The notes under the pieces were generated by a model, which did no database searches, had not been told where the DNA came from, and worked only from the letters and a program-made list of their open reading frames with translations. This document shows positions 1-22,464 of a stretch of DNA of 64,000 bases, in pieces. Where the stretch lies: contig NZ_LMQB01000001.1 of assembly GCF_001424045.1 (NCBI RefSeq), positions 2 through 64,001 on the forward strand, given 5' to 3'. Within the stretch, counting starts at the first letter, position 1. Each line of letters opens with the position of its first letter. Origin of the DNA: Rhizobium sp. Leaf371 (GTDB lineage Bacteria; Pseudomonadota; Alphaproteobacteria; Rhizobiales; Rhizobiaceae). Both the position numbers and the translations under genes were made by a program.

Positions 1-26
1 TGAACCGCGCCGGGTTTGCCGGAGGC
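1..26 (+). repeat. IS left terminal inverted repeat
   Basis: These 26 bases are the exact reverse complement of 1296-1321 and start TGAACCGCGCCGGGTTTGCC. They mark the left end of the IS3-family element. Confidence 0.93.
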
Positions 27-53
27 TCCAACTTCTGAGAAAGTGGAGCCACC

Positions 54-380
54 ATGAGCAAGACAACGAACAAGTTTTCACCTGAAGTCCGTCAGCGTGC
101 CATCCGTATGGTGCTGGACCACGAGGTCGAGCATCCATCACGCTGGGCTGCCGTTTCATCTATCGCTGCCAAGATTGGCTGCTCGCCAGCCACGCTGCAC
201 GAATGGGTCAAGAAGACCGAGGTCGATAGTGGCAAAAGAACAGGCCTGCCGAGCGATGTCGCCGAGAAGATGAAGGCTCTCGAGCGGGAGAACCGCGAGC
301 TTCGTCAGGCCAACGAGATTTTGCGCAAAGCTTCGGCCTATTTCGCCATGGCGGAGCTCGACCGCCCCTTCAAGCGATGA
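54..380 (+). CDS. IS3-family transposase OrfA (helix-turn-helix)
   Basis: 108-aa first frame of the IS. The N-terminal 60 residues form a transposase helix-turn-helix of the HTH_Tnp_1 type ([13 protein letters not shown], then [17 protein letters not shown]), which binds the terminal repeats. Residues about 70-95 ([21 protein letters not shown]) form the leucine-zipper-like coiled coil usual in OrfA, used for dimerisation. A GTGGAGCC stretch precedes the ATG. It overlaps orfB by four bases (ATGA), the arrangement expected for translational coupling or a -1 frameshift making OrfAB. Confidence 0.93.
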
Positions 381-1282
381 TTTCGTTCATCGACGAACAC
401 CGTGGTGTGTTTGGGGTCGAGCCGATCTGCAGACTGCTGCCGATCGCCCCGTCAACCTACTACGAGAATGTCGCCAAACGTCTGGACGTGGATCGCCTGT
501 CGATCCGCGCCCGCAGCGATGTCAGCCTGAAGATCGAGATACGCCGTGTCTTCGAGCAGAACTTTCGTGTCTATGGCGTTCGGAAGGTCTGGCGGCAGTT
601 GAAGCGTGAAGGCTTCGATGTAGCCCGCTGCACTGTCGCCAGACTTATGAGGTCGATGAGCCTGCAAGGTGTTATTCGGGGAAAGCCTATCCGCAAGACG
701 TTCTCGGACAAGACGGCTCCGAGCCCGCTTGACCGCGTGAACCGCCAGTTCAAAGCCCCTGCGCCGAACAGGCTGTGGGTTTCGGATTTTACCTATGTCG
801 CCACTTGGCAGGGCTTCGTCTACGTGGCCTTCGTGATCGACGTCTTCGCTCGTCGCATCGTCGGCTGGCGGGCGAGCCGGACGGCACACGCAAGCTTCGT
901 CCTCGATGCGCTGGAGCAGGCACTTCATGATCGGCGTCCTGCTCATGGCGGTGGCCTTGTGCATCACTCGGATCGCGGCGTTCAATACGTGTCCATTCGC
1001 TATTCCGAGCGGTTGGCAGAAGCCGGTATAGAGCCATCTGTCGGAAGCGTCGGCGACAGCTACGACAACGCCCTCGCAGAAACGATCAACGGTCTTTACA
1101 AGGCCGAGGTCATTCATCGACGTGGACCATGGAGGAGCTTCGAAGCGGTCGAGTTCGCTACCCTGGAATGGGTCGACTGGTTCAACCACCGACGCCTTCT
1201 GGAGCCCATCGGAAACATACCGCCAGCCGAAGCCGAGGAACGCTACTACGCCATGCTGGACGAACCAGCCATGGCCGCATAA
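377..1282 (+). CDS. IS3-family transposase OrfB (DDE integrase core)
   Basis: 301-aa catalytic frame. An N-terminal HTH_21-like region (residues about 50-105, with [10 protein letters not shown]) is followed by an rve integrase core. The three acidic residues are visible: Asp in LWVSDFTYV, Asp in HHSDRGVQY and Glu in [14 protein letters not shown]. The C-terminus has the usual [21 protein letters not shown] motif. It starts with the ATG that overlaps the orfA stop. No internal stop or missing catalytic residue was seen, so the protein should be functional once fused to OrfA. The end of this frame is duplicated just downstream. Confidence 0.94.
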
Positions 1283-1295
1283 CTTAACCGAAATG

Positions 1296-1321
1296 GCCTC
1301 CGGCAAACCCGGCGCGGTTCA
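1296..1321 (-). repeat. IS right terminal inverted repeat
   Basis: Exact reverse complement of the first 26 bases of the window, placed 13 bases after the OrfB stop. This is the right end of the intact element. Confidence 0.92.
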
Positions 1322-1335
1322 TGCTGGAGAGAACG

Positions 1336-1433
1336 CAGCCGAAGCCGAGGAACGCTACTACGCCATGCTGGACGAACCAGCCATGGCCGCATAACTTAAC
1401 CGAAATGGCCTCCGGCAAACCCGGCGCGGTTCA
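1336..1433 (+). repeat. Second copy of the IS right end (98 bp)
   Basis: Positions 1336-1433 repeat 1224-1321 exactly. The repeat covers the last codons of OrfB, its stop and the right inverted repeat. A 14-base stretch (1322-1335) separates the two copies. The copy has no left end and no start codon, so it is a remnant of a second element rather than a gene. It could come from a tandem IS arrangement that was deleted down, or from insertion next to an older IS remnant. Confidence 0.9.
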
Positions 1434-1571
1434 GTTTTATGATGGCCCGCCCTTCCGAGAAAATCGAGCATGATGTCTCGTCGGACGAACGAATATCGCG
1501 ATCGCCGGTTCGCCAAGGCTGGATCGACGGCAAACTGGTCCAAGGATGCAGCATTAGAATGATCCGTCACA

Positions 1572-2315
1572 CTAATGCTCCGCCCTGCCAAACTTGTATT
1601 TAATCAGGATCTCAATTCGCCGGTTGTTGCGTCGCTTGAGATCATCTGAGTTGGCCACGTATAAATCATTTGACGAAAATGTGGCGTCCCTCATGCGAGC
1701 CACCGGGCTGTAGAACCCGAAGCTGGAGACAGATACGAGTGTTGAAAGTGGGTTGATGCCGACGGGCCCGACCATATAGTCGAAGACCGTCATTGCTCTT
1801 TGAGCGCCGAGCTGAAGATTGAACTTCTCACTGCCGACATTGTCGGTGTGACCTAGGATCTGGATCTCCTCAAACGAATTTTGGATGGGCGCAATTGAGG
1901 ACCCAAAGTTCCTTAGGACCTCCTGCCCTCCCGGAAGGAGATCAGCTCTGTTCTGTTCAAAAATGGTATCGCCCTCAAAAGAAAAGCGCTGCGACGTCGG
2001 CTCATTGGTAATTCTGATTGTTTTGCCAAGGCCAACGATTGTCAGTTCAACGTCATTGCATGGGCGGTCGTTGGAAAGATCAGTTGAGGAAGACATACTT
2101 TTCGCCAGTGCCACAACGATGCGCTGCTTAGCCTCGCAGACCCGTCTGAGGTCGACATTGCCTCCCATAACCTCGACAAAGAACAACTTACTGACGACGA
2201 GCATGAGCAGAAGCGTAGCAAGAAGAGCCGGCATCAAATCGGTGAACGGGTTGACGGTTTCGTCATCAAATGATGTGTTTAAATGCGAGCCATCGTCGAA
2301 CAATATTGCCACCAA
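1572..2315 (-). CDS. OmpA/MotB-like membrane anchor protein
   Basis: 247 aa. One membrane segment (about residues 27-46, LMPALLATLLLMLVV) is preceded by PFTD, placing Asp26 where MotB, TolR and ExbD keep the proton-carrying aspartate. Residues about 110-240 form an OmpA-like peptidoglycan-binding domain, with GHTDNVGSEKFNLQLGAQRA and a terminal RRNNRRIEI. This is the architecture of MotB and of ZorB in Zorya defence systems. The frame opens with TTG GTG and no clear ribosome-binding site, so the exact start is uncertain. It is divergent from the 774-aa and MotA-like genes across only 58 bases, so shared control is likely. I infer that it pairs with the MotA-like protein at 4718. Confidence 0.8.
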   Translation of the reverse strand: MVAILFDDGSHLNTSFDDETVNPFTDLMPALLATLLLMLVVSKLFFVEVMGGNVDLRRVCEAKQRIVVALAKSMSSSTDLSNDRPCNDVELTIVGLGKTIRITNEPTSQRFSFEGDTIFEQNRADLLPGGQEVLRNFGSSIAPIQNSFEEIQILGHTDNVGSEKFNLQLGAQRAMTVFDYMVGPVGINPLSTLVSVSSFGFYSPVARMRDATFSSNDLYVANSDDLKRRNNRRIEILIKYKFGRAEH

Positions 2316-2373
2316 CCGTTGATGTTGTCACGATAGAAAGGCGAGTTTGGATTTGCAATAGGGGGACGAAGAC

Positions 2374-4698
2374 TTGCTGCTCGAAGAACTGATCTCGGAT
2401 GTTGAAATCAAAGAACCCTCTGTAATTCCTGTTTCAATACGGTTGGATAGAAAAGGCCGCTCTGTATCAGGTTTCTCGGGGTTGATGAGCGCTCGCTACA
2501 AGCGATACGTGCGGGCAGGTGTGGAGGCGACAAGCCGACTGCGCCGAGACTACAGCGCAGCCGGTGACGATCGCTCAATGCGTATTGACGTTTCAGTGCA
2601 CGCCGTAATCGACGGCCCGGACGCGGCCGAACGAGCAGCAATTGCCTCTGCAAGGACGTCTTGGCTTCAGGCGTTGAACAGCCAGGTTGACGCAGCATTC
2701 AACGAGGCAGCGAGAGGTGGAAACCGCTTTGCCTCCCTTCTCGCTTTGTGTGGGGAAGATGGAGCCGCAGATCTCTATGACAGGCTTGCACCGAAGCTGA
2801 GTGAGATTGGGCTTACCCTGACATCAACCATCGCTGAACCGGCTGATCCGGGTGTAACTGCTGTTCAATTCAAACGCTCAATGATCGTCGAAACAGACGC
2901 AGATCCGCTTTCCATCGATATTAGTTTCTCGCTCGAGCGAAATCCCGCGCGCGATACTGATTACTATACCTCGAGCGCTCCGTCTCAAGTCATTGTGGAA
3001 AAGCTCCACGCTGAATTGAGGGATTATCTTGAGAGAAGATACCCTTTGCAGCAATGGCGCTTTAATTCGGATCAGATCCGCGCCGAGACGCGCCAATTCA
3101 TAAACGCGAAAACCGCACAGTTTGGCCGGCAGATCGTCGGGCCTATCGTCATAAACAGCCCCGAGGAGCGTACAAACCGGGCAGTGTCGGTGAACGGCAA
3201 GTTCCGTCTCTCGTTACTAGGCCGCGATACGGAGGTGAGCTATTCCGCCGGTGTTCAGTTGACCGACGCGGCAACTTGGGAGCGGCTTAAAAGGAACGAC
3301 GCGGCCGTGCGCGATATGGCGCCCGTCGCGTCAACGGAGTTGCAAGCTGCGCTCACCCGTGTCGCAAAGCAGAGCGGCGACCAATATGCACTGGATATTC
3401 TTCTGAACCGAGTTGATGTCTTGGAGATGGCTGAAAAAGTCAGAGAGAATGCCAACAAGCACTTGCTGCCCTACGGATGGAAGTTAAGTGAAGTCGTTCT
3501 TGACGGGAAACCTTTTGCTGATGCTTTCGTCGTTAAGGGTGGCAGTAGCGTAACCCTAGATATTCAGGATTTCCCACTCGGGCTAAACCGTGGGTTCGCC
3601 AGATTGGGCCTTTCCGTCTTGCTCAAAGTTGTTGATCCACTCGCGTTGTTGAGTAGCGTGCAAAGCGGTGTCCAAAGCATCGACATAATCAGGGATCGTA
3701 TGAAGGTGGCGGTTCAGGACGTGACTAGGACGACGACAGCTGGGGAGTTTTTCGATTTCGCCTCACAAACGGAGCTTAAAATAAGCGACGCTTTGAGACT
3801 TCGCCTTGGAGAAGCGATTGAAGCAAATCTGTCCGATCTTGGCGTTGGTTTCGCCGTGGTTTCAAACAGCCGTGGCATGACTTTCAGGCTTGAAACCAAT
3901 CCTGCACTCGAACGGTTGTCACTACTCACGAATGAGCGGTACGAACTGCAATATGGGGAACCAGTGAAGGATTCCCGGGGCACCACCTACCCTGTAAAGT
4001 TTGACGTCCGAATGAGGGTCGACGGGCTTTCGAGCATTGCGCGCTATAAAGAGATCTTCATTGACCACTCGCTGAAAAAGGATCTCGCCGCTCATATCGA
4101 AGCTGTGAAAAAGACCGTTGAAGATTGCTGCGTGGCGGTTCTCCGCCGAATCCCCGCAAACTACTATTATCGTGAGAACTTAAGGACAACGCGGCTTGAT
4201 GGTTTTCTTGCAACAGTTCTGATGGAGCGGATAGAGACGTATCATGGTCTGGTCGTTGAGATCCCTCCTGGTCAAATCACGGTGCTTGTCGACGACGGCA
4301 ACAACATGAGCGGGGAGCTAGAAGATGCACGACGGGATTTAAAACGCCAGGTACTTCAAAATGCCGTTTTGATAGACGCGATCGATGACGGGGAATCGGA
4401 GCGGAAAATTGCAATGGCCGAGGAGCGCCTTGGCAAGCTCTTGGCGGTACAGGGCAAACTTCTGGAAGGCGAGTTGGGAGCGCAAGAGACGTTTGAGGGG
4501 CTACGCGACAATCTCTACCCCTATCTCCAGTATATCGCCGACGATCAGAACGTTCACGCCGCAGCGAAGGCGTTTCTTGACCGTCAGGGGCTTTTGACCA
4601 TTGCACCATCTCGCCCGGGTCAAATCCCTGCTTCGCAGCCGCCTCTAGAGATAAGCAGCGAGGACAGCGAAAACCAAAGCAGATCCACAGAATCTTGA
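2374..4698 (+). CDS. Large protein with possible SPFH-like repeats, unknown
   Basis: 774 aa, no signal peptide or obvious membrane segment. I do not recognise it with confidence. Several stretches share a pattern of a charged helix followed by a short strand, for example ALDILLNRVDVLEMAEKV then LLPYGWKLSEVVLD; KISDALRLRLGEAIEANL then LGVGFAVVS; and a third ending HGLVVEIPPGQITV. This recalls SPFH/band-7 domains in tandem, which is inference only. The C-terminal 60 residues look disordered (Ser, Pro and Glu rich). Translation probably starts at TTG 2374, eight bases after AGGGGGA. It lies 19 bases upstream of the MotA-like gene in the same operon. It may be a scaffold or sensor for the MotA/MotB-like channel. 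Confidence 0.6.
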   Translation: MLLEELISDVEIKEPSVIPVSIRLDRKGRSVSGFSGLMSARYKRYVRAGVEATSRLRRDYSAAGDDRSMRIDVSVHAVIDGPDAAERAAIASARTSWLQALNSQVDAAFNEAARGGNRFASLLALCGEDGAADLYDRLAPKLSEIGLTLTSTIAEPADPGVTAVQFKRSMIVETDADPLSIDISFSLERNPARDTDYYTSSAPSQVIVEKLHAELRDYLERRYPLQQWRFNSDQIRAETRQFINAKTAQFGRQIVGPIVINSPEERTNRAVSVNGKFRLSLLGRDTEVSYSAGVQLTDAATWERLKRNDAAVRDMAPVASTELQAALTRVAKQSGDQYALDILLNRVDVLEMAEKVRENANKHLLPYGWKLSEVVLDGKPFADAFVVKGGSSVTLDIQDFPLGLNRGFARLGLSVLLKVVDPLALLSSVQSGVQSIDIIRDRMKVAVQDVTRTTTAGEFFDFASQTELKISDALRLRLGEAIEANLSDLGVGFAVVSNSRGMTFRLETNPALERLSLLTNERYELQYGEPVKDSRGTTYPVKFDVRMRVDGLSSIARYKEIFIDHSLKKDLAAHIEAVKKTVEDCCVAVLRRIPANYYYRENLRTTRLDGFLATVLMERIETYHGLVVEIPPGQITVLVDDGNNMSGELEDARRDLKRQVLQNAVLIDAIDDGESERKIAMAEERLGKLLAVQGKLLEGELGAQETFEGLRDNLYPYLQYIADDQNVHAAAKAFLDRQGLLTIAPSRPGQIPASQPPLEISSEDSENQSRSTES

Positions 4699-4717
4699 GA
4701 CAAGGCAGAAACTGAGA

Positions 4718-6115
4718 ATGTCAAATATTCGCGCGGTTGCAACCGGTGCAAGTGGATCTTGGTGGTTGCCAGTCGTTTTCGTGCTTTACGTCGGTGCTCT
4801 CGTCGCTGTTGTTCCTACCCTCACGTTTTTTCCTGGCGAACAATTGAAATGGCCTTTCATCGTGCCGCATAGCATGGTGGACAGTTGGGAAGATTGGATC
4901 CGCATTGTTTCTGCCGGTATACTTCATGTCATCCCATTCTTCATGTTCGGGTCGGCGATCTTGGCGTTGCGTCGATTGGATCGCGAGCGCGCCTATGCTT
5001 TGAAAATCGCTAATGCCAGCAATGCTGCCGTGGGCAAGACCGACGACATTGTGGCGATTTCGGCCAAGGGATCAGCGACGCGTGACGACTTTGTAAGCTT
5101 ATTCGGTGGTGATTTTTCCGGGGGGCCTCCCGAAGCGAGTGAGTTGTTTAACGAACTCATCCAGAAATCCCTTTCTGGCCGTTTTGAACCAACCACCACA
5201 ATTCTGTCCAGCTACCGAGAGACGCTATCTCAAGATCTTTCGCGACTGGCTTCAGCGCAGCGGATCTGCCTACAGGGTGGGGTTTTCTTCACGTTTGTTG
5301 GTCTTGGCTGGGGCTTCAGCGTTGCAAAGTTCGGCAGTGGAACCAGTTTGTCGAATGGAAATGCCATTGTCGATGACATGCTCGGGAGTCTCAGCCTTGC
5401 ATTCGGTACTTCCATTGCAGGCCTTCTCGCATCGATCACGATCATTCTTTTGGCACAGATCGTCCGCCGCCGTTATATCCAGACACTCCTGGCGTTCTCT
5501 GTTCTTGTGCAGGCAGTCTTTGATCTTGGCCGCAGATTGCCTCAGGACAAGTTTTTCATAACGCAACTCTCTGAAATTTCGAACGCAGTAGGGAACTCGA
5601 CGGAAGCGACGCGCGTCGCAAATGATCGCCTGAATAGGCTGACGGACGCGATCGGGTCGGGTCTCCAAGAATTGGTTTCAGTGCGCAACTCGTTCGACGG
5701 CGCCGTCAACTCTATATTGGAAGATCAAAGGAAGCTTGGCGACACCTTCAAAGCTTACATCGATACCTTGGATCCCGAAAAACTGAGGCGTCAGATTGCG
5801 GTTCTCGTCGATCAAAACAACGATTCGGTTGCAAAGGATATCAGCCGCACATCGGCAGCGTTGGAAAGCACAACCGAGGCCCTCGCAAAAATTACTTCGC
5901 TTCTCGAAGCGATGCAAAGTCAGCGCAGCCGGGTTGAGGTGCAAGTGCCGGCGATGTCGCATAACCCAGAGTCACGCCGTCGCCGAGCCGCAGAGGTTCA
6001 AGACCGCCATGTAGCAGAACACAAAACGGATGTTCCTGACGACGCACTACCAATCGAAGGCCTTCAACCAGAGGCGATGCCGAAGCAATCTGTCTGGCGA
6101 CGGTTATTCAAATAG
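4718..6115 (+). CDS. MotA/TolQ/ExbB-like proton channel subunit
   Basis: 465 aa. Four membrane segments can be placed at about residues 15-37, 60-84, 186-205 and 222-248. The last two carry a MotA/TolQ/ExbB-like core: FFTFVGLGWGF, then LAFGTSIAGLLASI. A cytoplasmic tail of about 200 residues with heptad-like helices follows (residues 265-395), ending in a basic, disordered segment. Long tails of this kind are known in ZorA of Zorya defence systems, where the tail reaches into the cytoplasm. With the OmpA/MotB-like protein at 1572 it would form a peptidoglycan-anchored proton-driven motor. Other explanations include a dedicated transport energiser. No zorC, zorD or zorE homologue is seen beside it. 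Confidence 0.75.
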   Translation: MSNIRAVATGASGSWWLPVVFVLYVGALVAVVPTLTFFPGEQLKWPFIVPHSMVDSWEDWIRIVSAGILHVIPFFMFGSAILALRRLDRERAYALKIANASNAAVGKTDDIVAISAKGSATRDDFVSLFGGDFSGGPPEASELFNELIQKSLSGRFEPTTTILSSYRETLSQDLSRLASAQRICLQGGVFFTFVGLGWGFSVAKFGSGTSLSNGNAIVDDMLGSLSLAFGTSIAGLLASITIILLAQIVRRRYIQTLLAFSVLVQAVFDLGRRLPQDKFFITQLSEISNAVGNSTEATRVANDRLNRLTDAIGSGLQELVSVRNSFDGAVNSILEDQRKLGDTFKAYIDTLDPEKLRRQIAVLVDQNNDSVAKDISRTSAALESTTEALAKITSLLEAMQSQRSRVEVQVPAMSHNPESRRRRAAEVQDRHVAEHKTDVPDDALPIEGLQPEAMPKQSVWRRLFK

Positions 6116-6144
6116 CGCTGGCGAATATAACCTCGGACAGCGCT

Positions 6145-8556
6145 TCAATACGCACCCTTCAGGATTACCGACAAGCGATCCCTTAGTATTCTGCTCGAGT
6201 TGACGAGCTTGTCGATCCTGCTTTTCGTAACGCTGGTCTTAGCAGCGTCATAAAGTTGTACGACCGAATGGAGCAGTCGTTTGACGTCCTCGACTCCCTC
6301 CCTGAATTCGAGCCTCTCCAGCCGACACGCTCCGGGGCGACTCAGGTCCTTCAGTTTTATCGAAGCGTTTTCCCGGCTACTGGAAATGTCGATTAGCGTT
6401 GCTAAACAAAGGCCGCGGTTCATCCTGGCAAAGGGCTCCAGCGCGGCATGCATGGTTTGAAGCGAAATCCCAAGGGGAGTGGTTTTCAACCAAGTTGAGA
6501 TATACCGCACGTTCGGAGCACTGTTCGGTGCGCCGTGTGCCCGTGCCCAGGCGTAAAGAGCGGTAAGGAAAACTCGATCGTCTTGCCCGGACAGTAACAG
6601 CTCAGATACGGCAACCACCATTGGAGAAACGAGGCGTGCCCTACGGACGTCTAACACGTGCACTTGATATCTCCGGCTAATCTTGCGCTCGAGTGACGTG
6701 GGCACGCTTGTCTGTATCCATGTCGTTATTGCCGGAAAGGGCGGCTCAAAATATGGGCCCGTCGACATGATTAGCGACAGATCGTCCGGTCTGAGATTTA
6801 AAACGGACGCGTTCCAGTCTGCCATGGCGCTTGCTTCCCCGATCAACTTCGCGTGCCAATAGGCAAAGCTTCCGATCTGGAAAAGGTGCATTCCAGCAAC
6901 AAGCAATCCGACGGTGTTTGTTGCACGATACTGCTGGAGAAATTCGAGCCCCAGGGCAATCACGTGGTATGGGTCCGGCAGGACCTCGGCAAGAGTTTCG
7001 AAAAACCCGCGAAAGCAGGGAAATGTGTGGAGATGATCAATCTCGATTATATCGGCCAGGCTGTAGCCGTGAGATACGACAAGCTGCGCAAGCGCGCTAC
7101 CTGATATCCAGATAGCCCTCTCGATGTCTTCGATGTCGCTCAACTGCTTGAAGCGGATCTGGCCGATCAACTGCGGGAAGCGGGGGCTTTCGGGCAAGTC
7201 CGCTTCGGCAAGTTCGTGCATGAAGCCATTTATAGCGGTGACTGACCGGAAGGCGATCTCACGATCACCTAACGTTTCTTTATTGCGAAGAACCGCGACT
7301 AAACACGCCTCGAGCCCAGTCGCTAAAGCGGCAGGATCGGTTCGATGGAGTGGGAAGAGAGTGGCTTTTGCGAATAGGCGGCCGGCCTCGAATTCAAAGC
7401 CTTCTTCGACGCCGCTCTGGACAAGGATTTCAACGATTTCTTTAAAGAGTTCCTCTGCTTCCATGAAGCCCTGGCGGAATGTCTCTGCCATGCCTAATCG
7501 TCGGCCGTCGCCAGCAACCTGCACGTAGCTGCCGCTTGGATAGTCGCGCGCGCTCGCGGTCAACTGCGTCAACAAAACAGTGCCGACACGCATCTTGGGG
7601 CCGTCTGTCGTCGCCCGTCGCGCGGAAAAACCTTCGCACAAATAGCGAAATGTCGTCCTGGGAATCTTCTCAATCTGGCTTAATGCGAATGCCACCGGAA
7701 GCAGTATGCCGTCTGGATCGAGCAGTGCTTCCTTAGCAAGTTTCTGCCCCGCGGCTCGACTTGGAGATATATTTGCTGCGGGCTCTTCGAGGAAGGCTTC
7801 GAAGAACGCTTCAAACTGAGTTCCGTCGGTCAAGATAAAATCGAGCACGCTGGTCGAGGTGCTATCCCAATTTTTGAGGCTCGCCTGTTCACGAAAGTTT
7901 TTCTCTTCGGTCGAGCCGCCGGATAGACCTTCAACATCGATAAGTGCCTGCAACACTCCTAGCTCATCGATTCGTTCGATCGACGCGCGCCTACCGACTT
8001 GCTTAGAACTCGCGACAATTGCAAGAATCGTCTGCCCGTGCCACCCCTCCAATTCGCGCCAGAGTGCGTCGGCAAGTGGCTCACCCAACTGCACGATGTC
8101 AATTTCGACCAGCGACGGCCCGTGGACGTCTCTGATCTTTCTACCTATTTCTTCAGCCGTCGCCTGCTCCAGACGTTCCCTGCTAAGCGTCACATGATCG
8201 ATAAGGGACCACTCTTGATCTGACGCGCCGAGCATCATCCTTATGAAGCGGGCGTCCGTCGTCCAGATCCGCTTAGGGACGCAATTTTTGTCTTCCCAGC
8301 CAAGTCTGGCGTCCTTTATAGCCAGCAGGTACCTTGTAAGGTCGTCATGCACCAATATCTCGCCGAGAGGTCTAACCGGCACCTCCATCGGCTTGATCAT
8401 GTCATCGAGGAAAAATGCCGGCACACCGGGTTCATCACCCTGTTCGATCGGGTGGGCCTGCGATGCGGCCTGGCTCTGGGTTTCCTTGATGACCTCAGCA
8501 GATTCGGCTAGAATCTTGTTGGTCTCAAGCTCGGGGGAGATATCGTCTGGGTGCAT
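6145..8556 (-). CDS. 803-aa protein of unknown function, coupled to the TIR gene
   Basis: No Walker A, nuclease or other signature was found. The protein is soluble in appearance and mostly helical, with an acidic N-terminus (about 45 residues) that looks disordered. Residues about 90-230 have an alternating strand-helix look, and the rest resembles helical-repeat proteins. ATG 8556 is chosen because it lies one base after the TAG of the TIR gene (TAGAATG). That nearly certainly means translational coupling, so the protein should be made in step with the TIR protein and may be its sensor or regulator. The 3' end is convergent with the MotA-like gene, 29 bases apart. Longer reading upstream of this ATG would overlap the TIR gene and is unlikely. 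Confidence 0.7.
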   Translation of the reverse strand: MHPDDISPELETNKILAESAEVIKETQSQAASQAHPIEQGDEPGVPAFFLDDMIKPMEVPVRPLGEILVHDDLTRYLLAIKDARLGWEDKNCVPKRIWTTDARFIRMMLGASDQEWSLIDHVTLSRERLEQATAEEIGRKIRDVHGPSLVEIDIVQLGEPLADALWRELEGWHGQTILAIVASSKQVGRRASIERIDELGVLQALIDVEGLSGGSTEEKNFREQASLKNWDSTSTSVLDFILTDGTQFEAFFEAFLEEPAANISPSRAAGQKLAKEALLDPDGILLPVAFALSQIEKIPRTTFRYLCEGFSARRATTDGPKMRVGTVLLTQLTASARDYPSGSYVQVAGDGRRLGMAETFRQGFMEAEELFKEIVEILVQSGVEEGFEFEAGRLFAKATLFPLHRTDPAALATGLEACLVAVLRNKETLGDREIAFRSVTAINGFMHELAEADLPESPRFPQLIGQIRFKQLSDIEDIERAIWISGSALAQLVVSHGYSLADIIEIDHLHTFPCFRGFFETLAEVLPDPYHVIALGLEFLQQYRATNTVGLLVAGMHLFQIGSFAYWHAKLIGEASAMADWNASVLNLRPDDLSLIMSTGPYFEPPFPAITTWIQTSVPTSLERKISRRYQVHVLDVRRARLVSPMVVAVSELLLSGQDDRVFLTALYAWARAHGAPNSAPNVRYISTWLKTTPLGISLQTMHAALEPFARMNRGLCLATLIDISSSRENASIKLKDLSRPGACRLERLEFREGVEDVKRLLHSVVQLYDAAKTSVTKSRIDKLVNSSRILRDRLSVILKGAY

Positions 8557-8557
8557 T

Positions 8558-9448
8558 CTACCTAGCCCTGTTGATCCAAAGTGAAGCAGAACTGTCCTGC
8601 AGTATCGGTTCCAGCATATCTGACCCATGTCTGAGGATGCGCGGACCTTGGTCGGTTCTGCAGTAGACGCCGTCTCCAGCGGACCATTCGAGGCCGAACG
8701 GATGATTTTTGCCCCAATCTATGTTGCCCGGTGTGAAGGCCGCTTTGCATTGGTTGAGGTGAAGAATTGAGTCCCGAAGGTGAGCTGTTTTTTCCAGCAG
8801 GGATTTCAACTCCCCCGCCTTAATGTTTTCCGCGTGACGGGAAATCCAAAAGGCACTATCCGACCCACTCACGGGGATGCACGTTGCAGTCGGGAGTTGG
8901 CATTTTTCGCCTCCAGCCGTGTATTGAAGGATTTCCCAATAGGCGCGGACGTCGTTTTTATCGAAACTCAGCCCCGCTTCATTGGCAAGAGGCAGTTCTT
9001 TGCTCGTGCTCAAGATTAACTCTCGAATGAGGGCCTCGAACGAACCTTTTTCCGATAGCCTGGCAAACTGATGCGCGCTTCGGACATCCTGCGGCGGTTC
9101 AGCATCGTCAATATAAACTTGGAACGCTGTGCCTCGAAATAGATGAACCGCGACCTCCATCAAGATGATAGGCTTTTTGGCCTGATCGACGGATCGTTTT
9201 GACCAAAAGACGACCAAAGCATCGGCATCGTTAAGTGCTTTTCCGAGCTCCAGATGCCAGACCTTTCCGAATCTCAGGCTCGTCACGTGCTTTCGAATTG
9301 GGTGGGATTCCGGCCAGGGTAATGTCTCCTCGTACGTGCGATCCAACCAGAGCTCGAATCCGTGCGATACGAGTTCCTCCATTAGCGGCGCAATAAGAGT
9401 TTTGTCTTCCTTTGCATGCGATATGAACAGCCGCTTCCTGTGAGACAT
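8558..9448 (-). CDS. TIR-domain protein, probable defence effector
   Basis: 296 aa. Residues 1-140 form a TIR domain. It begins RKRLFISHAKEDKTL, continues with LVSHGFELWLDR, and has VVFWSKRSVDQ with a glutamate at residue 98 (ILMEVAVHL) at the position of the catalytic Glu of NAD-cleaving TIR proteins. The rest (150-296) is unassigned and could sense or bind a partner. ATG 9448 is preferred over longer reading because it begins directly at the TIR domain, with AAGAAAG upstream. It is followed with one base between by the 803-aa gene. TIR proteins in such settings usually deplete NAD+ or make signalling nucleotides during phage infection; which one applies here is not visible. Confidence 0.82.
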   Translation of the reverse strand: MSHRKRLFISHAKEDKTLIAPLMEELVSHGFELWLDRTYEETLPWPESHPIRKHVTSLRFGKVWHLELGKALNDADALVVFWSKRSVDQAKKPIILMEVAVHLFRGTAFQVYIDDAEPPQDVRSAHQFARLSEKGSFEALIRELILSTSKELPLANEAGLSFDKNDVRAYWEILQYTAGGEKCQLPTATCIPVSGSDSAFWISRHAENIKAGELKSLLEKTAHLRDSILHLNQCKAAFTPGNIDWGKNHPFGLEWSAGDGVYCRTDQGPRILRHGSDMLEPILQDSSASLWINRAR

Positions 9449-9484
9449 CCCAGACTTTCTTTGCGCTGGCAGCGCCAGACTGCC

Positions 9485-9526
9485 GGTAGTGAATATGTTG
9501 TCTTTACAATGCACTACCGCTATGTT
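9485..9526 (+). promoter_or_regulatory. Divergent control region with 7-bp inverted repeat
   Basis: GGTAGTG at 9485-9491 and CACTACC at 9512-9518 are perfect inverted copies. They flank a likely -35 box, TTGTCT (9498-9503), which is followed after 17 bases by TATGTT (9521-9526). The repeat could be an operator controlling the rightward membrane-protein gene and perhaps the leftward TIR gene. No regulator gene is visible in this block. Confidence 0.4.
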
Positions 9527-9571
9527 TCTTACCAGAGGAAGATGTTTAGCGTTGAAGTTTATTGGGTTTTC

Positions 9572-9991
9572 ATGGAAAAAGTATTTACTGATGCGAAAAT
9601 AAAGCACCTTGAAATGATCCAATCCGTGATTGCGCGCCTTGCCAACAGTAACAGCGCCCATAAAAACTATTGCATCACGCTGGTGACTGCAGTGTGTGGT
9701 TTGGCGACCACATTGCATCGCCCTTACATGGCCCTCTTGGCCATTGTTCCAGTCATGATTTTTGCCATCTTGGATGCACAATACTTGAGGCTTGAGCAGC
9801 GTTATAGGACGCTCTATGAACAGGTTAGGAGCGAACCGGTTACGGTAGCCCCAGATTTTCGGCTTTCCGTTGCAAACGTGAAAGGAGCCACCTTTCTCCG
9901 GACGCTCTTGAGCTGGTCAATTAGTGTATTCTACCTCCCAACCTTCTTGGGCGTTATTGCCGTCGCAGCCACCCTGTTGTTTTTGCCCTGA
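9572..9991 (+). CDS. Small multi-pass membrane protein next to the TIR gene
   Basis: 139 aa from ATG 9572 (an upstream in-frame ATG at 9542 is possible). The N-terminus VFTDAKIKHLEMIQSVI is followed by two closely spaced membrane segments (about residues 30-65), a charged linker with EQRYRTLYEQVR, and one or two more segments near the C-terminus. From memory this resembles small membrane proteins repeatedly found beside TIR-like genes in bacteria, possibly SLATT-like pore formers; I could not check this. It diverges from the TIR gene with 123 bases between starts. The ATG at 9572 leaves room for a leader after the candidate promoter, which favours it over 9542. Confidence 0.65.
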   Translation: MEKVFTDAKIKHLEMIQSVIARLANSNSAHKNYCITLVTAVCGLATTLHRPYMALLAIVPVMIFAILDAQYLRLEQRYRTLYEQVRSEPVTVAPDFRLSVANVKGATFLRTLLSWSISVFYLPTFLGVIAVAATLLFLP

Positions 9992-10070
9992 CACCAGCAT
10001 ACGTTTTTCCAACCCAGTTAGTCTAAGGCAGGGGAGGGCAGCTTTGCACACCTCTATTCTTGCGCGGCCA

Positions 10071-10331
10071 TCATGTGATCAACGGCTTGGTATCCGTAAC
10101 GGCAAATCTGGGGCGGTTCAGTGGTTTTCCGGCATGCACTTTGTTCCAGTAGCCTTGCGGTGGCAAAGGAACGCCATAATTGGATAGCTGCTTCCGCAGC
10201 CCAACATCCGAAATATCAAGCTCTCCGGCGAGATCGCGCATCGGCGCCGACCATGCAAATGCGATCAACTCTTCTGGCAAAACGAGAATATCGTTCCAGT
10301 TACCGTATCGCGTGACCATCCATAATCTCAC
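10071..10331 (-). CDS. Short protein with LA..ISDVGL...PPxGYW motif
   Basis: 86 aa. The core reads LAGELDISDVGLRKQ, then VPLPPQGYW and KVHAGKP, a helix-turn-helix-like motif I know from the N-terminal part of longer uncharacterised bacterial proteins, usually of several hundred residues. Here the frame stops about 25 residues after the motif, so it may be a truncated relic or a genuine short form. It starts at GTG 10331 or ATG 10319. It lies 27 bases after the nuclease-like gene on the same strand and is probably co-transcribed with it. Function unknown; DNA binding is a guess from the motif. Confidence 0.5.
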   Translation of the reverse strand: MRLWMVTRYGNWNDILVLPEELIAFAWSAPMRDLAGELDISDVGLRKQLSNYGVPLPPQGYWNKVHAGKPLNRPRFAVTDTKPLIT

Positions 10332-10358
10332 TTCTTGAAATGTAGATGATCTTTCATG

Positions 10359-12329
10359 TCAGCGGAGTTCGCTGCGCGGCCTCAAAGCGACTTGGATCTC
10401 CATCGTTGGCACGCCGAGCAGCGGGCGAGGCAGCGAACCAGGCGCGCCTCCCGCTCGCTTGACAAGCTCCGTATAGGGATCGCCAACGCGGAGTGCGAGC
10501 GCGTCATATGTAAGCCAGTCTGCCAGTGAGCGGGAGGCTACGGCAACCACATCTCGAGAGAGCGTTGTCCCCGATCCTCTGTGTTCGGACAGATCGGCAA
10601 CCAAATGGGTGGGGATCACCGGAACGCCGCGACCGCCAGCCGGTGGCCCATGGAAGAAATACACGCTTGCGTGCGTCTGCTCTTGCAGGTGAATACGCTG
10701 GTCGCGGTCAATCTTGAACGAGTCAGACCAAGCCGGCTGCTTACGGGCCTTCTTGTTTCGGTAGAGGCGTTTGGCTTGAACGAGCGTCACGCGCCGACCG
10801 AGTGAGATGCCGTCGATAATAGGGTCCACGATCAGGCACAAATCGGCTGAAAAGCTTTTCACCTTCCGGATGCCTTTTGCACCCTCTTCGGCGCGGTCAA
10901 CGTTGCGGTATTCCATGGTGACCGAGGCGCGATGCGGTGCGGCGGCAGCGCGAGCCAATGCCTCAAGCGCATGATCAAGGTCGGTGAAGCGGAGTGCAAG
11001 CTCGCGGAACAGCGAGGAAAGCAGTCGATCCTCACCTTCATCGCCGTGACTTATATATTCTTGAGCAACCCTGGCTTCTACGCGTGCGATCGTCTGTTCG
11101 ATCAGACGTTCCACGGCGCGATCGCCGAGCCAAGTGCGCGCAGGCTCGTCGGTAGGTGCGACGCCGCTGTCAAGCGTGACGAGAGCTTGCGCGAAGCTCC
11201 CGTTGGCGGGAAGAACTCCGATGCCAAGTTGCTCGCCAAGCTTCGCGGCTCTTACCGCGCGGGCCGCGTACTGAACTAGGCGGACGGGATGCTGTTCAAG
11301 CTCGAGAAGCGCGGCGCGATCTTCGGGCCGTGTGAGAGCGACAGCAGCGAACTGGGCGAGATCTGCTGCTCGACCTTCACCAGACCACAGCAAAGCTTCG
11401 ACGACCGCCTGCCGCAGTTGCGGATCCTCCCCGATCGTTGCACGTAGCTTGTCCACATATGCCGCACGGGTTTCCGCTGGGCGGCTTAGGAGACCGTGGT
11501 CGCGCCATCCTGCGCCCTGCCCAACCAGTTCAAGCACCAAACTCGCAACGTCGCGTACTTTAGTCTGCGCCTCGATTGCCTGCGCCATCTCAAGACGGTG
11601 GTCGATATCCGCTTGAGAATCCTTTGAACGATCGCCCCCTCGTTCAAAGGTTGCATGGAGACCAGCATAGTCGGGCCGCACATGCAGGATCGCTTGCAAT
11701 GACACCCAGGCGGTCCAGCCTATGCCGCGCCCAAGAGTGCAGAACAGAGACGTTGCAAGAACAAGGTCCTCCTTATCGCGGTTGCCGCGTTCAACAAGCG
11801 CCGCCACAAGCGTTCGTGCCACCGAGATCGCATCCGGCGTGAGTTCGTCGAGGACCCTCTCGAGCTGAAATGTGTAGTGCTGCCGAGTGGCAATGGAGGC
11901 CGCGAGTCGCGCGAAGAGGGCACCTTCGGACCGGAGTTTGGGAAACACGCTGAAAATAAATGATGGTTGGTAGCTATCGAATGCACGATTGACGAGCGGT
12001 TCGGCGAAGTATGGCCAACGTCGCTCGACATGGGCCGTCACCCGGCCGCGGAGCGTGTCGATCTGCATCCCGTGTCTGCCGAGCGACTCGATTGCATCAA
12101 GCAGTTTCAACATGACTGCGGCGTCGACGTAGGGGTCGGCTGTCGAATCTGCTAACGCAGACGTTGCCGCAATGATCTCGTCCGCGCCCGGTCCTTGATC
12201 CTTATCGATTTCGATTCTCCTACGTGGCGTCGGCTCCCGGCGTTCAGGGGCGAGATGACCGATTACTGCGCGAAGCATGTCGAGTTCTATGCGCATGCTT
12301 TCGGCGCCATGTTTCTTATCTGCATTCAT
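10359..12329 (-). CDS. 656-aa protein with a PD-(D/E)xK nuclease-like C-terminal motif
   Basis: The first 470 residues look like helical repeats. In the last third, ADLCLIVD (about residues 493-500) is followed by a strand and VTLVQAKRLYR (about 514-524). The spacing and the QAK triplet match the D...(E/Q)xK catalytic signature of restriction-type nucleases, for example Mrr-like folds. This is a motif call, not a domain search. ATG 12329 is chosen over the in-frame GTG 12347 because AGG lies seven bases upstream. The gene is followed by the small PPxGYW protein. Its position beside the TIR and MotA/MotB-like genes fits a defence nuclease, but the target is unknown. Confidence 0.6.
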   Translation of the reverse strand: MNADKKHGAESMRIELDMLRAVIGHLAPERREPTPRRRIEIDKDQGPGADEIIAATSALADSTADPYVDAAVMLKLLDAIESLGRHGMQIDTLRGRVTAHVERRWPYFAEPLVNRAFDSYQPSFIFSVFPKLRSEGALFARLAASIATRQHYTFQLERVLDELTPDAISVARTLVAALVERGNRDKEDLVLATSLFCTLGRGIGWTAWVSLQAILHVRPDYAGLHATFERGGDRSKDSQADIDHRLEMAQAIEAQTKVRDVASLVLELVGQGAGWRDHGLLSRPAETRAAYVDKLRATIGEDPQLRQAVVEALLWSGEGRAADLAQFAAVALTRPEDRAALLELEQHPVRLVQYAARAVRAAKLGEQLGIGVLPANGSFAQALVTLDSGVAPTDEPARTWLGDRAVERLIEQTIARVEARVAQEYISHGDEGEDRLLSSLFRELALRFTDLDHALEALARAAAAPHRASVTMEYRNVDRAEEGAKGIRKVKSFSADLCLIVDPIIDGISLGRRVTLVQAKRLYRNKKARKQPAWSDSFKIDRDQRIHLQEQTHASVYFFHGPPAGGRGVPVIPTHLVADLSEHRGSGTTLSRDVVAVASRSLADWLTYDALALRVGDPYTELVKRAGGAPGSLPRPLLGVPTMEIQVALRPRSELR

Positions 12330-12638
12330 ATTTAGCCTATCGTTCACATACGAATAGTCGCAGGACTATAGGCGAAGGCTTGGCAGCCGGTAACAGAGTT
12401 GAACGAGTTGCCTGAAAATTTCATGCGGACATGATCGAGTGGATCATGGCACACGAACCGAAATTATGAGCACCGCCGCCTTCGCCGGATGAACACCAGC
12501 CGAGTTACAGCGGCGGCTGAACAGCAGGCCTTCGTCCTGGCGATGGAAGCGTAGCGATGCACGGCACGGCGGAGTTTGGAATTAGTCTGGCACAGCAGCC
12601 AGCCGACCTGTATGCAACGCGCTAAGTCTTGCTTCATT
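12330..12638. other. Gap without a convincing gene
   Basis: About 310 bases between the nuclease-like gene and the small secreted protein. I see short open stretches on both strands but no ribosome-binding site with a sensible start and no tRNA. It may carry the promoter of the leftward nuclease-like gene. Confidence 0.5.
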
Positions 12639-13028
12639 TTAACGAACGGTCCATTTTCCCGTCGTGGTCATTCCGAGCAGGTGGACGTCGCCAGTGGCCC
12701 CGGCGTGTGCCTCCGCGGGAATGAGGTTGTAAAGGAAGGCTTCTACCTCCCTACCATCAACGCCGACGAGAAGACCAGTGCCCTTGACAGCGAAGCCAGG
12801 AACGACGTTGGTCCCGGCTTTATAGGAACCACTTCGTGCTTTTAGTAGATCCCCAGGATTATCATTAGTTCCGGCCCATCTTTTGCTGTCGCCATCTAAG
12901 AAGACTGAGGCCGTTCCACCAGAAGTGCCGACGATGCGGATTGTCACATCCGCTGCTATGGCAGGAAAGTAAGCCCCCGTGAAGAGCAGCGCCCCCAATA
13001 GCACTTTACCAATATCTCTTTTCAGCAC
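12639..13028 (-). CDS. Small secreted protein, unknown
   Basis: 129 aa. GTG 13028 follows GAGGT at good spacing and gives a clean signal peptide (MLKRDIGK, hydrophobic core, then PAIAA before DVTIRI). The mature part is glycine and threonine rich and strand-like, with no cysteines and no motif I know. It points away from the giant gene, with 400 bases between the starts, and may belong to the same functional group, since another small secreted protein follows the giant pair. Confidence 0.6.
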   Translation of the reverse strand: MLKRDIGKVLLGALLFTGAYFPAIAADVTIRIVGTSGGTASVFLDGDSKRWAGTNDNPGDLLKARSGSYKAGTNVVPGFAVKGTGLLVGVDGREVEAFLYNLIPAEAHAGATGDVHLLGMTTTGKWTVR

Positions 13029-13428
13029 CGGTAATACCTCTACTTCTGAATGCGATTTCAACGTCTTTTCTGCTGTTATCCGGAAGCATCATTCCTAAGC
13101 AGCGACGCTGTGTCTATCAGTCAACTCGTCAGGCGATTATTCTTTTGAAGCGCGCGCCAATCGAACACGCCATATGAACAGCAAGTTCGAATTCTAAACT
13201 AGCATGTATAGCTTGTCCCAAATATATTTTTCTATTTCCCCTTGTTGCCGCGTTGACGTTTGCGAATTGCTAGACGAGTATGGCGGAACGTTCGCATGTA
13301 TTGGGGGTTGCGGACGTCATCACTGGATTTGTTGCAATCAGACTTCTCACTTGCGCTTGGCAGGGCCGGATTTCCGCTCTTCGCCGAAGGTGCGTGCTTT
13401 TGCGCGCGCGTAGACCACAGGAGGGGGC
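13029..13428. other. AT-rich divergent intergenic region
   Basis: Four hundred bases between divergent starts. The middle is clearly AT-rich (about 13,120-13,250). A possible rightward promoter is TTGACG at 13,253-13,258 with a weak -10 (GAGTAT) after 17 bases. It presumably holds the promoters for the secreted protein and the giant pair. No gene is supported. Confidence 0.4.
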
Positions 13429-16400
13429 ATGGACAATCGTCAAGGGCTTGAGATCTCACGCCGTGGCTTCTTGCTGGGTGTTGCTTCGCTGCCCGTTGCA
13501 CAGGAAGCTCTTGCAGCGGAGGCACCGGACAGCGACACCGACCTGATTTTCGACCTCTCGCCTGACGAAGCCACTGTTCGCGTTGTTCGCGTCGCACGGC
13601 CAGCCTTCGAGTCTAATGATGCCGGTGCGGCGGAGGGGAGTAAGTCGGCGGACCTTTCCCGCCAATGGCAGGCATGGGAGCTACATGCCTCCGCATTCGG
13701 CAAGAACGCGTTTTTCGATCTGGAACCGCGCACGCTCATCGACAAGGACCTGGAGGCGGCTCACGCATTGGCGGTTCGCGACGTTTCCTATGGCGAACTT
13801 GCCGGCGGCACGGTGATCCTGCGCTTCTACGAGTCTGATCAGGGCGGCAGGCACTGGCGCGTCGGGATGATCACCGATGTCTGGCACAGCGAACGAGGTG
13901 GGCGCAAGCAATACCACGTGGCCGCAAAGGACGGCCAGCCGCTCAGCGAGATGGCCAAGGCTGACGGCGCGGCACGCCTTTCGATGACACTGACGCCGGC
14001 CCGCATCAACAAGACTTTCGAATTGCTGGCCGATGGATTGATCCGCTGCGATGCGGGCATCTCGACGGTTGCACTCGACGGCGCCATGAATTGGCACGTC
14101 AATGGGTTGCTGTCGACATTTGACGGAAAGGTCCGCCTTGGCGACCTTACCTTCGGATGGCAGCAAGAATCAATTAGCGCCTCGACCGCGGAGGCTCGGG
14201 CAAGTACCGAGGCGCTCTTTCTCGCCACTGCCGAGGTGGTCAAGATGGAGCCGCTGCCGCTTGGTACGAGCAAGGAACTCCCGCTTACGATCCATGCGGA
14301 TTCAGGCGGAGAGGGCGCTAACTTCACGCTCATCGGCAGGACCCGCAAGCTTGCGGCCTTCTCAAGCCGCGATCCTTCACAATCTGGCCCGCAGGCCGCG
14401 GCGGTTGCGTGGATCCAACCGGTCGCCGGGCAAATCACGACGGACAGACCGGCAGCATCGGCGCCCATTGCAAGCTTCGCGACGCTGCCGTTCCATGAGG
14501 CCACGATCAGCCAAACCCTCAGCCTCTCATCTAAAGGCACGCCAAGACGCACTGCATTCTGGGGAGATGCGGGTTTGCTGCATAAGACCAGGCCCAAGGA
14601 CTTTGTCGATCCGGATCCGGGCGATGACTCGATCGGCGAAGTCAATACGCGGATCGGCCGCGTTCGCTACCGACAGGTACCTGCCGAAAAACCCGGGGCG
14701 GAAACAAAGGACAGCTTGCGGACGAGAATCGGTAAGATCATCTCGGCCGCGCTGGGCGATCGATCCGGCGTCTTGCAAAACACCCTCTACGCTGCTGGCG
14801 ACGGCCGCCCTTCGGTTGTTCGGAGGTTTTCAGCAGACCTGCACCTCGTTGGCCTCGACGCCGCGCTGCCGGACGTCCAGGACAGCCAATTGCAGTTCGA
14901 TCCAACGCTCCTGCGCCTTGCCTTTACTGACGGCGTATCGCTAACCGCGAAACCAGGGGTCCCCTTCTACGAACAGGCATTGGCCGAACCGCCAGCATTC
15001 ATCTGGCTCGGGCCTGCGGCAGCGGGTCTCCCCGTGGCCCGCTTCGATCTGCTGAGGGCAGCCCTCAAGGCGCGAGGTGACCGTGACCTGGTCGATCTCA
15101 CGTTCCGATTTGCCGACATGCGCCTGGATTTCACGTCGACCGGCCTCGGCTACCAGAGACAGATCAAGCCGCGCGCAGATGATTGCGGCGTGAGGTCGGC
15201 CGTCGACGGCACAGTGATCGACAACCGGCCCATCCTGTCGGTCGAATTCGCGCCGCAACACGTGATGGAGGAAGCATTCTTCCAGTTGGAGCCGCCGCCC
15301 TTGCCGGATGCACCGACCTTTCTGGAGCGCGGCGACCCGGGAGTAAAGACGCCGCCCAAATTCATGGAGAGCGCGGCAGCCGTGCTCGCCCGGCTAGACG
15401 TCATTCCCGACGAAGAAGGCCGAAGAAATTTCCGGATTGAGGTACAGGCCCGCAAGATTGCCATGGAGGTCGCCAGCCGCCTTGGCGCATCGACGCCGAG
15501 CCCGCTGACCTTCGAACACTTCGCCGGATTGTTCGGCGCAGTGGCAACGGTTCTGCCGCGGGACCAAAAGGTCTACATCGGCCCATTGGGGTTGGATCCC
15601 GACGGCATGGATATCGCCAGGCGAGAACGCGACAAGGTTCTTTCCCAGGCGCTTGCCGCGGCGCCGGCTGCCATTGAAAAGGACGCATCTGATCTTTTGT
15701 CGAGGAAATACTCGGGAACGGGCGGAAACCCGGATGCACCCGACCTGACGGAGGCTCTTCGGCGCGAGCGGGAGATCGAAAACGAACTTCCGGTCTACAG
15801 GCTGTGGCGCGACTGCTGGCGCGATACGGTTCTCGACCAGAAGGGGAGCGGCGCACCGCTTGAATGGCTCATGGACGGCAACCGTCCCAAGGACGGCAAA
15901 TTCGGCACCGGAGATAGATTCGACAAGGCGACCAAGGATAAGGCCGTGAAGTTGATGATCGATCGGCTGTCGGGCCAGGAAGAGATACCCGAGCTTGCAA
16001 AAGCGCGACATTCCGGTCCCACGTTTCTCGCCTTCCACATCAATTGCACGCCATCTGCCCAGGATGATCCGGAGACAAACTGCCTCCCGGCCGCATCGGG
16101 CTCGTCGCCCAAGGCGCCCGGGGGCCTCGGGACGTCCTTCAGTGCTTTTCCATTTACCTTTGAGGCGCTCACGGATTGGTCACACCATGAACCTGCCGTA
16201 ACCCGTCGAGCTCGAAACATCTACTCGCCGACCGCAGGCGGCGAACTGCCGCCGGTCGCTGACCGCGCCGGGGATCTGGACTTGAACAAGATGCTGGTGT
16301 TCCAAGGCATTTCCGAAGCTCCGCACCAGACCGCCTCGCAGCGCATGCGTGAGATCCAGGCCTCCGTCAATGAAACGCCGGCGCCTTTCGAAACGCACAT

Positions 16401-22452: not shown

Positions 22453-22464
22453 GAAGGCGTGGTG

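What the first reader, a model, noticed from the sequence alone, without database searches (positions are those of the whole stretch)
1572..9991. Candidate undescribed defence locus built from MotA/MotB-like, TIR and unknown large proteins
Seen: a MotB/OmpA-like anchor with the key Asp26, a MotA/TolQ-like subunit with a long cytoplasmic tail, a 774-aa partner, a TIR protein with Glu98, a one-base-coupled 803-aa protein and a small divergent membrane protein, all in one AT-richer block after an IS. Known: Zorya systems use ZorA/ZorB motors and TIR proteins act in anti-phage systems. Inferred: the two modules act in defence, possibly together. No zorC, zorD or zorE gene is present, so it is not standard Zorya.
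Basis: partly seen in the sequence, partly recalled or inferred. Interest (0 to 1): 0.88.

Follow-up and report, generated by a model that had tools for sequence, protein, structure and literature searches.

The report
Candidate motor-SPFH-TIR phage defence cassette
A six-gene cassette pairs a flagellar-stator-like proton motor with a protein made of repeated stomatin-like domains and a TIR enzyme; it looks like an undescribed, rare bacterial immune system related in principle to Zorya, but no defence test has been done.

Summary
In detail: MotB/OmpA (Asp26), 774-aa protein, MotA, 803-aa protein, TIR (Glu98) and a small membrane protein lie at 1572-9991. (2) All six genes recur in the same order and orientation in Rhizobium sp. 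16-449-1b (37-71% identity) with different flanks, so the cassette is a unit. (3) An SPFH-MotA-MotB core occurs in eight further loci. Over the ten loci it sits with a TIR protein (4) or an active-looking trypsin-like protease (5); one contig ends too early. (4) The small membrane protein is PADLOC's defence candidate PDC-M50A; of 28 plasmid relatives, 10 were examined and all had a TIR gene nearby (nine annotated, one by eye). It is not Zorya: ZorA scores are far below cut-offs, no ZorC-G, and these MotAs split from ZorA3 in a tree. Best reading: a Zorya-like, motor-based immune system with a new SPFH component and exchangeable TIR or protease effectors. Defence is inferred; the 803-aa protein is unassigned. 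No description was found in the open-access library searched.

The parts
1572..2315 (-). MotB/ZorB-like stator B subunit: one membrane helix with the proton-site Asp26, OmpA-type peptidoglycan-binding domain (247 aa, TTG start)
   Evidence: Pfam OmpA 1.1e-10; PADLOC ZorB1 1.6e-13; P23 and D26 invariant in 9 of 9 aligned proteins; 71% identical copy in L013
2374..4698 (+). SPFH repeat protein: probably five tandem stomatin-like domains (about 44-161, 161-264, 264-383, 384-512, 513-642) and a C-terminal helical region; no clear membrane helix (774 aa, TTG start)
4718..6115 (+). MotA/ZorA-like stator A subunit with a C-terminal cytoplasmic tail, probably coiled coil (465 aa)
   Evidence: NCBIfam ZorA_2 6.8e-9, below cut-off; profile match to six other MotAs (five of the trypsin class and L021) E 3.4e-16; 53% identical copy in L013
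6145..8556 (-). 803-aa protein of unknown fold, in operon with TIR; proposed adaptor or sensor
   Evidence: no family at E up to 1 in Pfam, PADLOC, NCBIfam; 37% identical copy in L013; AlphaFold model of no use, pLDDT 44.6
8558..9448 (-). TIR-domain protein, putative NADase or signal-making enzyme, catalytic-type Glu98 (296 aa)
   Evidence: Pfam TIR_2 1e-8; Glu98; 56% identical copy in L013
9572..9991 (+). small membrane protein of the PDC-M50A family, putative membrane effector or receptor of the TIR product (139 aa, two strong hydrophobic segments)
   Evidence: PADLOC PDC-M50A 5.8e-27; TIR gene nearby at 10 of 10 plasmid loci examined of 28 found; 69% identical copy in L013
2316..2373 (.). 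58-bp gap between the divergent MotB and SPFH genes, presumed to hold both promoters
   Evidence: sequence; the same divergent arrangement in L013; promoters not tested

Best explanation
The six genes form one immune system that works on the Zorya principle but is not Zorya. Shown: MotA and MotB homologues with the proton-site Asp; a peptidoglycan-binding-type domain on MotB; a partner chain of SPFH domains; a TIR protein with catalytic-type Glu; a PDC-M50A membrane protein; conservation as a unit; exchange of TIR for a trypsin-like protease elsewhere. Inferred: MotA and MotB form a proton-driven inner-membrane motor anchored to peptidoglycan that feels envelope disturbance by an infecting phage. 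Its cytoplasmic tail is held by a ring or cage of the SPFH protein, in the way FliL, also an SPFH-like fold, assists flagellar stators. A change in motor state is passed through the SPFH assembly and the 803-aa protein to the effector. TIR then cleaves NAD, making a nucleotide signal or draining NAD, and the PDC-M50A protein responds in the membrane, as in Thoeris-type signalling. In the sister class the protease takes the place of TIR.
For: Six-gene colinear copy in L013, with no match between the two sets of flanks in the frames compared. Core SPFH-MotA-MotB in eight further loci (L009, L011, L014-L018, L021). Effector next to the core: TIR in 4 of 10 loci (window, L013, L015, L016), trypsin-like in 5 of 10 (L009, L011, L014, L017, L018), of which three have direct Pfam Trypsin hits (L009, L017, L018) and two (L011, L014) rest on homology and active-site motifs. 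In the tenth, L021, the contig ends upstream. Asp26 in 9 of 9 MotB-like proteins aligned. SPFH fold by structure. PDC-M50A with TIR genes nearby. Sparse spread, as is common for defence genes: 803-aa protein in 1 of 7 genomes of the genus and 1 of 297 of the family, 774-aa protein in 1 of 385 of the class, each time only the window's own genome.
Confidence: 0.55

Rival explanations
1. Two neighbouring modules that work independently: a MotAB-SPFH envelope machine, and a TIR-803-PDC-M50A defence system sharing the same mobile site.
For: PDC-M50A with TIR occurs with no motor gene among the annotated neighbours on the plasmids examined; MotB, SPFH-MotA, 803-TIR and TM are separate transcription units by orientation.
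Against: All six genes stay together and in order in L013 while flanks differ; TIR also sits beside SPFH-MotA-MotB in L015 and L016, where I noticed no PDC-M50A but did not search for one; in five other loci a protease takes that place.
Confidence: 0.2
2. An envelope or transport machine of the Tol/Exb/Mot type that uses proton force at the cell wall, with TIR or protease as regulators, not immunity.
For: OmpA-type anchor; lipoprotein-like glycine-zipper genes in the trypsin class; metabolic neighbours in several loci.
Against: Very sparse spread even within a genus, strong divergence of the cytoplasmic parts (37-39% against 69-71% for MotB and TM in the same pair), effector exchange, and PDC-M50A.
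Confidence: 0.15
3. A divergent Zorya type whose accessory genes have been replaced.
For: ZorA models are the best profile hits of MotA in PADLOC and NCBIfam, and ZorB models the best of MotB in PADLOC; the MotA profile also pulled out two true Zorya III loci.
Against: ZorA scores: at most 22 bits in PADLOC, 35.3 bits in NCBIfam where cut-offs are 100-500, against 475 and 791 bits for true ZorA3; no ZorC-G; the ten MotAs split from ZorA3 and ~350-aa MotA/TolQ-like proteins with 99/99 support (types I and II not included).
Confidence: 0.1

Closest known systems
Zorya (types I-III)
   Same: Proton-motor A/B pair of the MotA/MotB superfamily, peptidoglycan-binding B subunit, long cytoplasmic A tail, cytoplasmic effector genes alongside (PMC11890865, abstract and passages)
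   Different: No ZorC/D, ZorE or ZorF/G found; adds an SPFH repeat protein and an 803-aa protein; effector is TIR or a trypsin-like protease; ZorA and ZorB scores below the curated cut-offs
FliL with the flagellar MotAB stator
   Different: FliL has one such domain, in the periplasm (partly recalled); here several domains in one chain with no clear membrane helix
PDC-M50 (PADLOC candidate: membrane protein plus TIR)
   Same: The small membrane protein is PDC-M50A, next to a TIR gene
   Different: The TIR does not match PDC-M50B, and the motor, SPFH and 803-aa genes are added
Thoeris
   Same: TIR enzyme with a separate partner protein that could read its product (mechanism recalled)
   Different: No ThsA profile hit; partner is a small membrane protein
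Trypsin-like protease modules of AVAST, Hachiman, Lamassu, DRT (PMC12799240, abstract and passages)
   Same: A trypsin-like protease acquired as an immune effector module (sister class here)
   Different: Here the protease is a separate gene in a motor-SPFH locus; the word Zorya does not occur in that paper's main text

Membership tests
Zorya | ZorA by curated profile | tested here: not met
   NCBIfam ZorA_2 35.3 bits against cut-off 100; best PADLOC ZorA 22 bits, against 475 and 791 bits for true ZorA3 in L019 and L020
Zorya | B subunit with membrane Asp and OmpA-type domain | tested here: met
   Pfam OmpA above cut-off, PADLOC ZorB1 1.6e-13, D26 in 9 of 9
Zorya | ZorB by curated NCBIfam profile | tested here: not met
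   ZorB1 17.8 bits against cut-off 400; several OmpA-type families score higher
Zorya | ZorC/ZorD, ZorE or ZorF/ZorG in the locus | tested here: not met
   no such hit among 8 proteins of 1572-12347 at E up to 1
Zorya | MotA groups with ZorA in a tree | tested here: inconclusive
   split from ZorA3 with 99/99 support over 129 columns; ZorA1 and ZorA2 not included
SPFH/Band 7 superfamily | SPFH fold | tested here: met
SPFH/Band 7 superfamily | membrane anchor | tested here: inconclusive
   hydropathy plot only: one borderline segment in the window protein, none in L013
PDC-M50 | M50A membrane protein | tested here: met
   5.8e-27
PDC-M50 | M50B TIR protein | tested here: not met
   the window TIR does not match PDC-M50B at E up to 1; the Bradyrhizobium TIR does, 6e-48
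TIR NADases | catalytic Glu and NAD cleavage | tested here: inconclusive
   Glu98 present; activity not testable here
Thoeris | ThsA partner | tested here: not met
   no ThsA hit among 8 proteins
Any defence system | protection against phage | not testable with these tools
   needs plaque assays

The most novel reading that the evidence does not exclude
A separate class of motor-gated immunity: a proton motor is coupled to an SPFH chain whose five domains per molecule may match the five-fold symmetry of the MotA ring, forming a cytoplasmic cage that holds TIR or a protease inactive until envelope damage changes the motor's state. The SPFH-motor core would be a general sensor, with effectors swapped as in CBASS or AVAST. 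The five-to-five match is speculation; the longer relative in L015 (1014 aa) may carry more repeats.
Probability: 0.3. Interest if true: 0.92.

Novelty: new variant of a known kind. Interest (0 to 1): 0.76.

Why it matters
If true, stator motors were recruited for immunity in a form distinct from Zorya, and SPFH proteins, known as membrane-domain scaffolds and stator helpers, would have an immune role for which I found no paper in the library searched. The exchange of TIR for a trypsin-like protease around one motor core gives a direct test of how a motor passes a signal to an effector, an open question for Zorya.

Tried and rejected
Single-sequence searches with the 774-aa protein gave no true relative: genome contigs (60 pattern stretches, none confirmed), viral contigs (3, none), plasmids, 385 class genomes (only its own). 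Among 397 order genomes the one foreign hit (L002) lies across a frame with stops over what reads as a sugar-nucleotide gene; rejected as spurious. The L009 SPFH protein found only itself in 249 order genomes, the L011 one only G893 in 247 family genomes and only itself on plasmids; the L017 one found only the L011 record on plasmids, the L013 one none.

The MotA profile on 101 relatives matched 80 genomes; apart from the window gene these are mostly ~350-aa MotA/TolQ-like proteins, so that count says nothing about this system. Against solved structures it hits mostly unspecific coiled coils, with a MotA/TolQ/ExbB channel protein and a ZorA at E 0.005; the MotB and SPFH profiles gave nothing convincing (best E 0.057 and 0.78).

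Viral scans with MotA (43 stretches) and 803-aa (69 stretches) alignments found nothing.

Homology of the 803-aa protein with the large proteins of other loci: not detected. That it is an inactive STAND-type NTPase with a helical repeat was only an impression by eye. The 803-aa model (pLDDT 44.6) was not searched.

A shared FGE-like C-terminal domain in TIR and protease proteins: not supported (one weak Pfam hit, 0.036, in L015).

A two-sequence profile did not link the 774-aa protein to the trypsin-class partner (E 0.25); six against two sequences did (E 5.2e-6). With eight sequences L015 and L016 joined (earlier weaker, 1.4e-4 and 0.0076). Internal repeats by profile: R2-R3 (3.8e-5) and R1-R5 (0.0015) stand out among ten pairs; three pairs lie at 0.011-0.029 and five at 0.05 or more. 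Shuffled controls gave E 0.06 or higher.

First MotA tree: of the nine control loci L022-L030, L028 was left out beforehand (stop inside), L024 gave no usable frame and L027 was wrongly extracted; one search dropped L027, leaving six.

Absence from print rests only on searches of an open-access library without preprints, seen as listings (15 of 516; 10 of 11). The one hit (PMC13239085, oak decline phages) and the conflict-system papers PMC8195603 and PMC10907252 were not read. In PMC7159879 the two terms occur only in the reference list. PMC12505986: passages only. The main Zorya paper in Nature is not held and was not read.
Full report
1. What is there. The window starts at the end of contig C1 of an unnamed 5.09-Mb genome. 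Its relatives in the searches (Rhizobium, Neorhizobium) and the genome sizes in its family suggest a rhizobial-type alphaproteobacterium; this is inference. A transposase pair (54-1282) is followed by six genes: MotB/OmpA (1572-2315, -), a 774-aa protein (2374-4698, +), MotA (4718-6115, +), an 803-aa protein (6145-8556, -), TIR (8558-9448, -) and a small membrane protein (9572-9991, +).

2. The single proteins. MotB has an OmpA domain (1.1e-10); its best defence-library match is ZorB1 (1.6e-13), but in NCBIfam general OmpA families score above ZorB, all below cut-off. MotA matches ZorA models only weakly (NCBIfam 35.3 bits, cut-off 100). The 774-aa protein has a Pfam Band_7 hit just above cut-off, clearer in its L013 copy (1.7e-7). 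The TIR hit is 1e-8; its best PADLOC matches are the candidate PDC-S66 (9.7e-7) and ThsB (6e-5). The small protein is PDC-M50A, 5.8e-27. The 803-aa protein matches nothing at E up to 1 in Pfam, PADLOC or NCBIfam.

4. The cassette is a unit. A MotA profile (three sequences) scanned over genome contigs gave 311 pattern stretches and 9 confirmed loci. One, L013 of Rhizobium sp. 16-449-1b, has all six genes in the same order and orientation: MotB 71%, SPFH 39%, MotA 53%, 803-aa 37%, TIR 56%, membrane protein 69%. Of the L013 reading frames compared with window 1-16000, only those of the cassette matched. The right neighbour in L013 carries a weak nSTAND-type NTPase hit below cut-off; the window's right neighbour (662 aa) has no such hit. 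The membrane parts are conserved most and the cytoplasmic SPFH and 803-aa proteins least, as expected if these two face a changing target (inference).

5. A wider family. Of the 9 loci, 7 carry an SPFH-type protein: L013, L014, L017, L018 and L021 by BLAST, and L015 and L016 by profile (E 4.5e-6 and 3.5e-6, against 0.06 or more for 20 shuffles and 0.25 or more for five other large proteins). The other 2, L019 and L020, are true Zorya III (ZorA3 475 and 791 bits, ZorG). Two more loci came by other routes: L009 (genome G893, found with the window MotA) and L011 (Neorhizobium sp. NCHU2750 plasmid, found with the L009 SPFH protein). That makes ten SPFH-MotA loci with the window, nine besides it. 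Four have a TIR protein (window, L013, L015, L016). Five have a trypsin-like protease (L009, L011, L014, L017, L018), with the Ser motif GxSGGP in 5 of 5 and TCAHV in 4 of 5, TASHV in the fifth by eye. In L021 the contig ends upstream. The trypsin class has a common order of about 350-430-aa protein, protease, about 1000-aa protein, SPFH, MotA, MotB, with MotA-MotB divergent in L011 and L017, and the first protein not called in L018. Lipoprotein-like genes with glycine zippers lie in the loci L009 and L011 (related by BLAST) and, by eye, L014 and L017. L016 is an Arcicella MAG (Bacteroidota, recalled), so the core reaches beyond Alphaproteobacteria; L015 is an unplaced bacterial MAG.

6. The motor. 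Pro23 and Asp26 of MotB are invariant in 9 of 9 aligned MotB-like proteins (L011 not in that alignment). In a tree of 18 MotA core sequences (129 columns) the ten SPFH-linked MotAs are separated from two ZorA3 and six ~350-aa MotA/TolQ-like proteins of relatives by a split with SH-aLRT 99 and bootstrap 99. The tree is unrooted and has no ZorA1 or ZorA2, and four inner nodes among the ten are weak (bootstrap 37-64).

7. The TIR side. tblastn of the membrane protein over plasmids gave 28 records. I examined 10 of 28. In 9 the record's own annotation places a TIR gene at most about 0.6 kb away, once with a HIT gene between. The tenth, an unannotated Neorhizobium record, has a TIR-like frame downstream by eye only. 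In Rhodococcus the membrane protein lies within a gene annotated as HIT family, and the next gene is annotated as DISARM drmD. PADLOC names the two families PDC-M50A and PDC-M50B. This is the strongest pointer to immunity.

8. Rarity. The 774-aa protein: 1 of 385 class genomes. The 803-aa protein: 1 of 7 genus genomes, 1 of 297 family genomes with a two-sequence profile. Each time the one is the window's own genome. MotA by sequence: 2 of 297, its own and G893. No plasmid match for the SPFH protein of the window or L013.

9. How it would work. Shown: the parts, their conservation and the effector exchange. Inferred: a proton-driven motor anchored to peptidoglycan reports envelope disturbance; the SPFH chain forms a ring or cage at its cytoplasmic side; the 803-aa protein links it to TIR; TIR acts on NAD; the PDC-M50A protein acts in the membrane. 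Zorya gives the precedent for the motor (PMC11890865: abstract and passages) and FliL for a stomatin-like protein with stators (start of the abstract of PMC6426602 in a listing). Trypsin-like proteases are known exchangeable immune modules (PMC12799240: abstract and passages). What TIR and Thoeris do is recalled.

10. Novelty. No paper in the listings of eight searches combined these parts (not all hits were listed or read); preprints and most subscription papers are not in the library. By membership it is not Zorya; by working principle it resembles Zorya. I call it a new variant of a known kind, with a fair chance that it deserves a class of its own.

Noticed in passing
window 1280-1440: A short segment after the transposase, including the end of its reading frame, is repeated in tandem (about 110 bp apart), as if the right end of the insertion sequence had been duplicated.
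   Followed up: no
window 12417-12491: A stretch of about 75 bp has 75-76% identical copies at four other places of the genome, two at contig ends, and a 77% copy in a sibling genome; not a tRNA by ARAGORN.
   Followed up: partly
window 13429-22452 and 22459-27777: Two very long adjacent open frames (3007 and 1772 aa) of unknown role.
   Followed up: no
window 10359-12347: 662-aa protein right of the cassette with no family hit above cut-off; no L013 frame in the held stretch matches it, a gene with a weak nSTAND-type NTPase match lying in that place.
   Followed up: no
L040, L043 and rows H6-H8, H10, H12, H22: PDC-M50A relatives in actinobacteria lie in or beside genes annotated as HIT-domain proteins, with TIR next to them in the two examined (L040, L043); a TIR-HIT-membrane signalling module is suggested.
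   Followed up: partly
L009, L011, L014, L017 (trypsin class): Lipoprotein-like genes with glycine zippers recur in these loci, hinting at an envelope-spanning machine (L014 and L017 by eye).
   Followed up: partly
L016 473-1525 and L015 1196-3376: The TIR proteins of these loci carry Sel1 repeats (L016) and a long extra region with a weak FGE-sulfatase hit (L015), so the part after TIR varies between systems.
   Followed up: partly
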